A DNA stretch of 64,000 nucleotides from Nitrospirota bacterium. Lineage in GTDB: Bacteria; Nitrospirota; Leptospirillia; Leptospirillales; Leptospirillaceae. The stretch lies in NCBI GenBank assembly GCA_021801345.1, contig JAJYYA010000041.1, positions 34,504 to 98,503 of the forward strand, read 5' to 3'. Positions 63,544 through 64,000 of this stretch are shown here, piece after piece. Each line of letters starts with the position of its first letter. The first letter of the stretch is position 1. The notes beneath the pieces are model-generated. The model was not told the origin of the DNA, did not search any database, and saw only the letters and a list, made by a program, of their open reading frames with translations. The translations under genes were made by a program, and so were the position numbers.

Positions 63544-63883
63544 ATGGTCGGGAGTGTCCGATAAGTCTTTGAGCGAGGGTCAACCACCCCGCCGTGAACG
63601 GCGGAGCTTGAAAGGAGGTTCGACAAGCTCGGGTTGACCAGAAAGAGCGGTATCCAACCCGCTACGTTGACCATAGGCAAGAAGACTCACCCCGGGGTGC
63701 TTCCTCAGCTCCGGGCTCTGGAACGTGCGGATGCAGACAACCGCGAGGGCAAGGACGAAACGGTCCGCACGAGGGGGAGGGATCCCCTAAAGCCGGTGGT
63801 CACCATTTTCGAGGGGAGACGCCTTGCTAGAGGCGCGTTACGGCGGAAAGCGCCAGTGCAACGTAAGTTTTTCAGGAGTTTCC
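63544..63883 (+). ncRNA. HEARO / omegaRNA upstream of iscB
   Basis: About 340 bases rich in stems precede iscB. GGTCAACC (63578-63585) pairs with GGTTGACC (63632-63639), enclosing CCGCCG/CGGCGG (63589-63604, TGAA loop) and AGCTTG/CAAGCT (63605-63610 with 63624-63629), a three-way junction. Further stems: 63646-63650 with 63659-63663; 63688-63699; CGTGCGGA/TCCGCACG (63724-63731 with 63764-63771); 63820-63824 with 63831-63835. HEARO RNAs lie directly 5' of HNH-endonuclease (iscB) genes and act as the guide-bearing RNA of the nuclease. The 5' end is inferred. Confidence 0.88.
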
Positions 63884-64000
63884 ATGCAGGTTTTCGTACT
63901 CGACAAACACAAAAAGCCTCTCATGCCCTGCCACCCGGCCCGGGCACGGGAGCTTCTCGGGAACGGGAAGGCGGTGGTCCACAAGAGGGCCCCCTTCACG
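63884..64000 (+). CDS. iscB: RNA-guided HNH endonuclease IscB, N-terminal 39 residues (3' end outside window)
   Basis: IscB is an RNA-guided nuclease and the ancestor of Cas9, programmed by the omegaRNA encoded next to it. The visible residues have the PLMP motif (12-15) in FVLDKHKKPLMPCHPARARE, then LLGNGKAVVHKRAPFT, the family's conserved N-terminal block. The ATG at 63884 follows CAGGAG at 63873-63878. RuvC and HNH domains lie beyond the window, so activity cannot be judged. Confidence 0.93.
   Translation, partial: MQVFVLDKHKKPLMPCHPARARELLGNGKAVVHKRAPFT

What the first reader, a model, noticed from the sequence alone, without database searches (positions are those of the whole stretch)
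63544..64000. IscB with its omegaRNA (HEARO) at the window edge
The N-terminal PLMP block of IscB and an upstream RNA with a three-way junction and at least five further stems are directly visible. IscB-omegaRNA pairs are programmable RNA-guided nucleases, Cas9 ancestors. This one follows a metabolic gene with no visible transposase, so it may be a stand-alone, possibly host-retained copy.
Basis: partly seen in the sequence, partly recalled or inferred. Interest (0 to 1): 0.95.

Follow-up and report, generated by a model that had tools for sequence, protein, structure and literature searches.

The report
IscB elements docked at start codons
The window ends inside a gene for IscB, an RNA-guided DNA-cutting enzyme related to Cas9, with its guide RNA beside it; it is one of a dozen or more copies of a mobile element in this Leptospirillum-like bacterium, several of which sit exactly in front of a host gene's start codon, where the element's end likely takes over starting that gene's translation.

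Summary
In detail: HEARO (omega RNA) matches 63579-63824 (97.3 bits), and 39 IscB codons run from 63884 to 64000, which is also the contig end. Contig C32 very probably carries the rest, followed by fliM; about 100 bases are missing between the contigs. It is not a lone, host-retained copy: the assembly has 14 HEARO and 14 IscB matches, no detected Y1 transposase, and six relatives lack this insertion. Three elements carry omega RNA without IscB. The unexpected part is the docking: right ends stop directly before ATGA, and in 8 of 18 junctions of this genome further evidence makes that ATG a host gene's native start, against 18 of 445 ATGA sites in the window. At accB, four relatives show the clean empty site. 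A family-wide Pfam count alone is weak support. Five of nine annotated plasmids have a CDS starting at the junction. That the right end restores translation is inferred. The window's own copy is not at an annotated start.

The parts
62794..63543 (+). dienelactone/YghX-type hydrolase gene, left neighbour
   Evidence: ORF, 249 aa; NCBIfam YghX-family hydrolase 69.7 bits, below its cut-off of 460
63557..63564 (+). TCCGATAA, shared upstream of fliM in relatives; perhaps a promoter -10 (flagellar sigma type, recalled)
   Evidence: present in 5 of 6 readable relatives; promoter role untested
63559..63578 (+). host sequence to the left of the element, predicted omega RNA guide
   Evidence: position by the known 5' guide layout of IscB (PMC9755519 passages); left flanks differ between copies up to this point
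63579..63609 (+). left end of the element, GTCAACCACCCC with a short hairpin
   Evidence: shared by the IscB, omega-RNA-only and TnpB elements of this genome
63579..63824 (+). omega RNA (HEARO)
   Evidence: RF02033, 97.3 bits, cut-off 83
63874..63878 (+). AGGAG, probable ribosome-binding site of iscB
   Evidence: sequence
63884..64000 (+). first 39 codons of iscB, cut by the contig end; the rest is probably on contig C32 (G000:C32, read backwards)

Best explanation
This is the 5' half of an IscB gene with its omega RNA, one of a dozen or more copies of a mobile element in this genome whose right ends lie directly before ATGA, in several copies the start codon of a host gene, and which likely keeps such genes translated by bringing a new translation-start region with it. 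Shown here: the two ends, the multi-copy state, the ATGA junctions, the start-codon position of several copies, the clean empty site at accB, and that no Y1 transposase is detected in the assembly. Inferred: a Y1 transposase acting in trans inserts the element before ATGA, which would be target and TAM at once; the host sequence to the left, in several copies the host's ribosome-binding site, becomes the omega RNA guide; IscB would cut the empty copy of the same site and so favour re-copying of the element. The host gene's separated ribosome-binding site would be replaced either by an AAGGAG in the element's right end, brought near the ATG by a hairpin, or by ribosomes that end iscB at or just before the host ATG and start again. 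The window's own copy sits about 70 bases before the fliM start, not at an annotated start codon.
For: HEARO 97.3 bits; 14 HEARO and 14 RRXRR matches in the genome; C27 IscB is NCBIfam guided_IscB, 461 bits, cut-off 175. accB: the element is 429 bases; in G015 the flanks are contiguous, and G008, G010, G011 read the same, with ATGA once and a GGAGG just before it. In this genome 8 of 18 junctions have evidence for a native start: accB; pyrG (relatives match from the ATG); MoeB-like (profile from its start); COX1-like (24 of the best 25 homologues have the same length, 191 aa); a GGDEF-like gene (homologues 459-460 aa for 458); an NTP_transf_8 gene (GGAGG and an in-frame stop in the left flank); TrlF-like; a Big_7-type protein. 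Against 18 of 445 ATGA sites in the window, Fisher p 1e-6. AAGGAG in 48 of 58 right ends; hairpin predicted in 5 of 5 folded. Stops at the host ATG in C27 and C31, and 2 bases before it in C61 and C10. Plasmids: 5 of 9 junctions are an annotated CDS start, 3 with the iscB stop overlapping it.
Against: No functional step was tested. The window's own copy, and 9 others of the 18 junctions here, are not shown to be at a native start: one is inside a Fic-domain gene, one inside a TnpB gene, one appears to be antisense. Family-wide, a Pfam match downstream is hardly commoner than after random ATGA sites: 28 of 40 frames of 60 codons or more, against 19 of 30 random ones (p 0.6); with a stricter N-terminal criterion 18 of 40 against 6 of 30 (p 0.04). 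Annotated plasmid starts may be biased, since an annotator would also place a start at the junction if the element had cut a gene. Predicted exposure of the AAGGAG is mixed: high in 2 of 5, partial in 2, very low in 1. C27 has AAGAAG instead and C47 stops well before the ATG. Distant plasmid copies lack a clear AAGGAG beside the hairpin (by eye). The union of C38 and C32 rests on synteny.
Confidence: 0.62

Rival explanations
1. An ordinary IscB element with an ATGA target and no translation function: it inserts at any ATGA, selection removes copies that break genes, and start codons are simply among the tolerated places; host genes survive by chance signals.
For: About half of the junctions here are not at a native start; the Pfam count is weak against random ATGA sites; predicted exposure of the ribosome-binding site is mixed.
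Against: 8 of 18 native starts against 18 of 445 ATGA sites; insertion before accB, the only accB matched, separates it from its GGAGG; AAGGAG is kept in omega-RNA-only and TnpB elements, where it is not IscB coding sequence.
Confidence: 0.28
2. A host-retained, single IscB-omega RNA with a cellular role at fliM.
For: No transposase nearby or detected in the assembly; the insertion lies between the hydrolase gene and fliM, just after a sequence kept in 5 of 6 relatives.
Against: Many copies, up to 97% alike over 425 bases; six relatives lack it at this place.
Confidence: 0.04
3. The window copy is a dead remnant: the iscB frame is broken in the unseen part or on C32.
For: About 100 bases with RuvC-I are unseen; the join is by synteny only. 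Other copies are damaged: C73:168777 has a TAG, and C10 has Pro at the aligned HNH His.
Against: Both visible parts are open; the copy nearest to the visible part, C27 (97%), is complete.
Confidence: 0.1

Closest known systems
IscB-omega RNA / HEARO (OgeuIscB, PDB 7xht; Rfam RF02033)
   Same: PLMP, RuvC and HNH motifs align, DPG, E, H and H/D included (C27 copy); HEARO RNA directly upstream; layout left flank - omega RNA - iscB
   Different: Here the element's right end and the iscB stop are fitted to a host ATG; omega-RNA-only copies and TnpB elements share the ends
IsrB-omega RNA
   Same: Published TAMs NTGA and NTG (PMC9581776, passages read) equal ATG/GTG/TTG, with A in the fourth place for NTGA
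   Different: IsrB lacks the HNH domain; that text has no occurrence of 'start codon'
IS200/IS605 elements with Y1 transposase in the same family of genomes
   Same: Similar right-end hairpin
   Different: They end at ATCA (4 of 4 readable) and have no AGGAG beside the hairpin (0 of 5, by eye); the elements here carry no tnpA (0 of 65 loci)
IStrons (group I intron plus IS)
   Same: A mobile element that spares the host gene (PMC4227781, start of abstract in the listing)
   Different: IStrons do so by RNA splicing; here it would be at translation

Membership tests
HEARO RNA (RF02033) | Covariance-model score over the gathering cut-off | tested here: met
   97.3 against 83 bits
IscB | PLMP / RRXRR N-terminus | tested here: met
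   window 63884-64000; PF14239 positions 1-37
IscB | Complete RuvC I-III and HNH | tested here: inconclusive
   Window copy: RuvC-I in the gap, HNH and RuvC-III on C32. The near-identical C27 copy has all four motifs and NF040563 at 461 bits
IscB | RNA-guided cleavage next to a TAM | not testable with these tools
   needs a biochemical assay
IS200/IS605 insertion sequence | Subterminal hairpins, fixed flanking motif, no target duplication | tested here: met
   accB copy: flanks contiguous in G015, ATGA present once; hairpins at both ends
IS200/IS605 insertion sequence | Own Y1 transposase | tested here: not met
   0 PF01797 matches in the assembly; none in 65 right-end loci
Host-retained single-copy nuclease | Single copy kept at the same place in relatives | tested here: not met
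   Multi-copy; absent from the place in six relatives

The most novel reading that the evidence does not exclude
IscB/HEARO elements are start-codon-docking transposons. Their target and TAM, NTGA, is the start codon itself; their guide is the host ribosome-binding region; and their right end is a portable translation-start module (ribosome-binding site plus hairpin, or an iscB stop codon fused to the host start), which makes insertion silent even in front of essential genes such as accB and pyrG.
Probability: 0.4. Interest if true: 0.78.

Novelty: new variant of a known kind. Interest (0 to 1): 0.54.

Why it matters
If right, the short NTG(A) motifs of IscB-type nucleases have a simple biological reason: the element docks on start codons and hides by taking over translation, a silent-insertion strategy comparable in spirit to self-splicing IStrons but at the level of translation. 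It gives a rule for finding right ends and guides, explains why transposase-less copies can accumulate in front of essential genes, and supplies omega-RNA-only elements that would depend on IscB in trans. Each step can be tested with a small reporter in E. coli.

Tried and rejected
Host-retained singleton: rejected. A transposase elsewhere in this assembly: none found. Y1-transposase elements of relatives as the direct source of the ends: similar hairpin, but ATCA and no AGGAG, so left open. ATGA as part of the element rather than of the target: rejected by the accB empty site. The pyrG element as merely decayed: changed, because the same variant right end recurs in G017.

A family-wide count as main proof: withdrawn. 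I first compared 29 of 62 junctions (28 by Pfam at E <= 0.001, of which 24 over the curated cut-off, plus L181 by likeness to L139) with 18 of 445 predicted starts (p 4e-18). That is not like for like, because a Pfam match also follows an in-frame ATG inside a gene. Controls made afterwards: 111 of 445 ATGA sites are in frame with a called gene with at least 60 codons left (29 of 62 against this p 0.0007, the 7 of 18 of this genome p 0.18), and 19 of 30 random ATGA frames have a Pfam match.

The literature searches listed no paper on start-codon insertion by IscB. Weinberg 2009, Kapitonov 2015, Altae-Tran 2021 and Meers 2023 are not held, so prior mention there cannot be excluded; that HEARO elements lie before ATGA or GTGA is recalled from Weinberg 2009.

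Rows left out: six weak right-end matches (C17, C51, C62, C14, C69:175200, C50); L143, the reverse of a palindrome already counted; 4 of 50 relatives' rows (three G005, one G009); two G007 rows seen only. From the 62 I dropped L183 and L193 (same gene as L175) and L200 (contig end). In four relatives (L197, L261-L263) the script took the first ATGA after a partial match. Pfam was run on 40 junction frames of 60 codons or more; L255 (62 codons) was not run, L182 only in NCBIfam, L181 not scanned. Nine of 25 listed plasmid hits (51 records in all) were fetched. One relative (L083) could not be read; C47 was missed by the pattern.

Full report
WHAT IS THERE. Rfam's HEARO model matches window 63579-63824 on the + strand with 97.3 bits (cut-off 83) over its full length and is the only match at gathering threshold in the window. 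The sequence then shows AGGAG at 63874-63878 and an ATG at 63884 that opens 39 IscB codons, with PLMP, up to base 64000. Base 64000 is also the end of contig C38 (98,503 bases) of a 2.6 Mb assembly in 73 contigs. The organism is Leptospirillum-like: the closest public loci for its IscB are a Nitrospirae MAG (78 and 84% identity) and a Leptospirillum sp. MAG (72%).

THE OTHER HALF. Contig C32, read backwards, begins inside an IscB frame (386 codons; from about residue 72), shows HNH and RuvC-III, ends at the element's right end and goes on to fliM (TIGR01397, 310 bits, cut-off 220). In six relatives the window's hydrolase gene is followed by fliM with no element. C38 and C32 are therefore very probably the two sides of one insertion with about 100 bases missing; this rests on synteny, not on reads. 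In G009 an ATGA lies 10 bases after the shared TCCGATAAGT, about where the insertion is; the other five have none there.

A MOBILE FAMILY. The genome has 14 HEARO matches (12 over cut-off), 14 RRXRR matches and 21 matches to GTCAACYACCCC (reversed control 0), not all of them complete elements. Left flanks differ up to GTCAAC; right flanks differ after ATGA. HEARO occurs in 9 of 21 genomes of the family, with at most 5 matches in any other. No Y1 transposase is found here, though 15 of 21 family genomes have one. Y1-transposase elements of relatives have a similar right-end hairpin but end at ATCA (4 of 4 readable) and have no AGGAG beside it (0 of 5, by eye). Movement in trans is inference. 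Three elements of about 430-450 bases carry the omega RNA but no iscB (C4, C59, C73:103476); a related variant stands before pyrG and recurs in G017. TnpB elements share left and right ends. Of 65 right-end loci, 31 hit IscB (some only through the shared end), 10 TnpB, 24 neither, none TnpA.

WHERE THE ELEMENTS SIT. The 18 right junctions examined here, and 43 of 47 in relatives, end at ATGA; since the search sequence ended in ATGA, this alone proves little. The empty site does: at efp-accB the element is 429 bases, the flanks are contiguous in G015, and G008, G010 and G011 read the same, GGAGG...ATGACAAAC, with ATGA once. For 8 of the 18 junctions there is separate evidence that the ATG is the native start: accB (above; TIGR00531 residue 4 at profile 4); pyrG (relatives match from the ATG, and the nearest, G019, has an 87-base gap to kdsB without element; TIGR00337 from residue 1); a MoeB-like gene (profile from residue 1); a COX1-like gene (24 of the best 25 homologues are also 191 aa); a GGDEF-like gene (458 aa; 11 homologues of 459-460 aa covered in full); an NTP_transf_8 gene (GGAGG and an in-frame stop 8 codons before the junction); a TrlF-like gene (profile from residue 13, below cut-off because the piece is cut); and a Big_7-type protein (just under the Pfam cut-off). 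In the window 18 of 445 ATGA sites are predicted starts by a simple gene caller of mine; Fisher p 1e-6. Left flanks of IscB and omega-RNA elements hold a ribosome-binding-like motif in 6 of 11, against 20% of random 14-mers (p 0.013; TnpB elements 1 of 5).

WHAT SPEAKS AGAINST A SIMPLE COUNT. Family-wide, 29 of 62 junctions precede a recognisable gene, but so do many random ATGA sites: 28 of 40 junction frames and 19 of 30 random frames have a Pfam match (p 0.6). A stricter criterion, a domain starting within 60 residues and from the first 12 profile positions, gives 18 of 40 against 6 of 30 (p 0.04), and three of those six random passes are inside genes by my reading. Nine annotated plasmids from five classes end their IscB element at ATGA by eye, and in five the next annotated CDS starts there, though annotators would favour that ATG in any case. 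Of 21 readable GTDB loci, 8 have a frame of 60 codons or more at an ATGA or GTGA near the iscB end; I accept six (L049-L051, L054, L055, L061).

HOW IT LIKELY WORKS. At accB the native GGAGG is left about 440 bases upstream, yet this is the only accB matched, an essential gene by established knowledge, so translation must start with help from the element. Two routes are open. First, right ends carry AAGGAG (48 of 58; GGAG of some kind in 54 of 58), also in omega-RNA-only and TnpB elements where it is not IscB coding sequence; a predicted hairpin of about 40 bases separates it from the ATG and would bring it to about seven bases. Predicted exposure is mixed over five copies. Second, iscB stops in the ATGA itself in C27 and C31, 2 bases before the ATG in C61 and C10, but earlier in C47, and overlaps the next start in three plasmids, the usual layout for re-initiation. 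IscB elements are transcribed towards the host gene and precede a recognisable gene in 16 of 29; TnpB elements, transcribed away, in 1 of 9 (p 0.03, small numbers, hand tally). The guide would be the host leader, and IscB would cut the empty site, as described for TnpB (PMC11870625, passages). IsrB's published TAMs, NTGA and NTG (PMC9581776, passages), are the start-codon set. None of these functional steps was tested here.

WHAT IS ORDINARY. The window's own copy is an IscB-omega RNA of a known kind, in the leader of fliM and not at an annotated start. New to me are the start-codon position of several copies and right ends that seem built to suit it.

Noticed in passing
L047 (G000:C8) and L120 (G010:C6): 99.2% identical over 1,671 bases up to and into an IscB element, far above the usual likeness of these species: recent transfer or a binning error.
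   Followed up: partly
L139 (G000:C69) and L181 (G009:C51): In two species an IscB right end stands at the start of the same COX1-like gene (74% over 1,881 bases): an old shared insertion or a repeated one.
   Followed up: partly
G000:C10 and G000:C73:168777: Damaged IscB copies: Pro at the aligned HNH His in C10; an internal TAG in C73.
   Followed up: no
window 63557-63564: TCCGATAA upstream of fliM is kept in 5 of 6 readable relatives, and the element sits 14 bases after it: perhaps a flagellar-type promoter -10.
   Followed up: no
L134 (G000:C38, right of the copy at 5999): The gene behind this IscB copy resembles TrlF and the anti-phage protein Ppl (291 and 267 bits, below cut-offs).
   Followed up: no
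L258 (G011:C127) and L260 (G017:C3): Right ends that run AAGGAGGA into ATGG instead of ATGA, before the same-looking gene in two species: perhaps an old junction reshaped into a normal ribosome-binding site.
   Followed up: no
L034 (G000:C4:18514-18976): An omega-RNA-only element lies inside what appears to be a Fic-domain gene, next to a zeta-toxin-like gene (by eye). Only described; flanks not joined.
   Followed up: no
L155 (G000:C63:36300-37500): A TnpB element with the same right end inserted at ATGA inside another TnpB gene.
   Followed up: no
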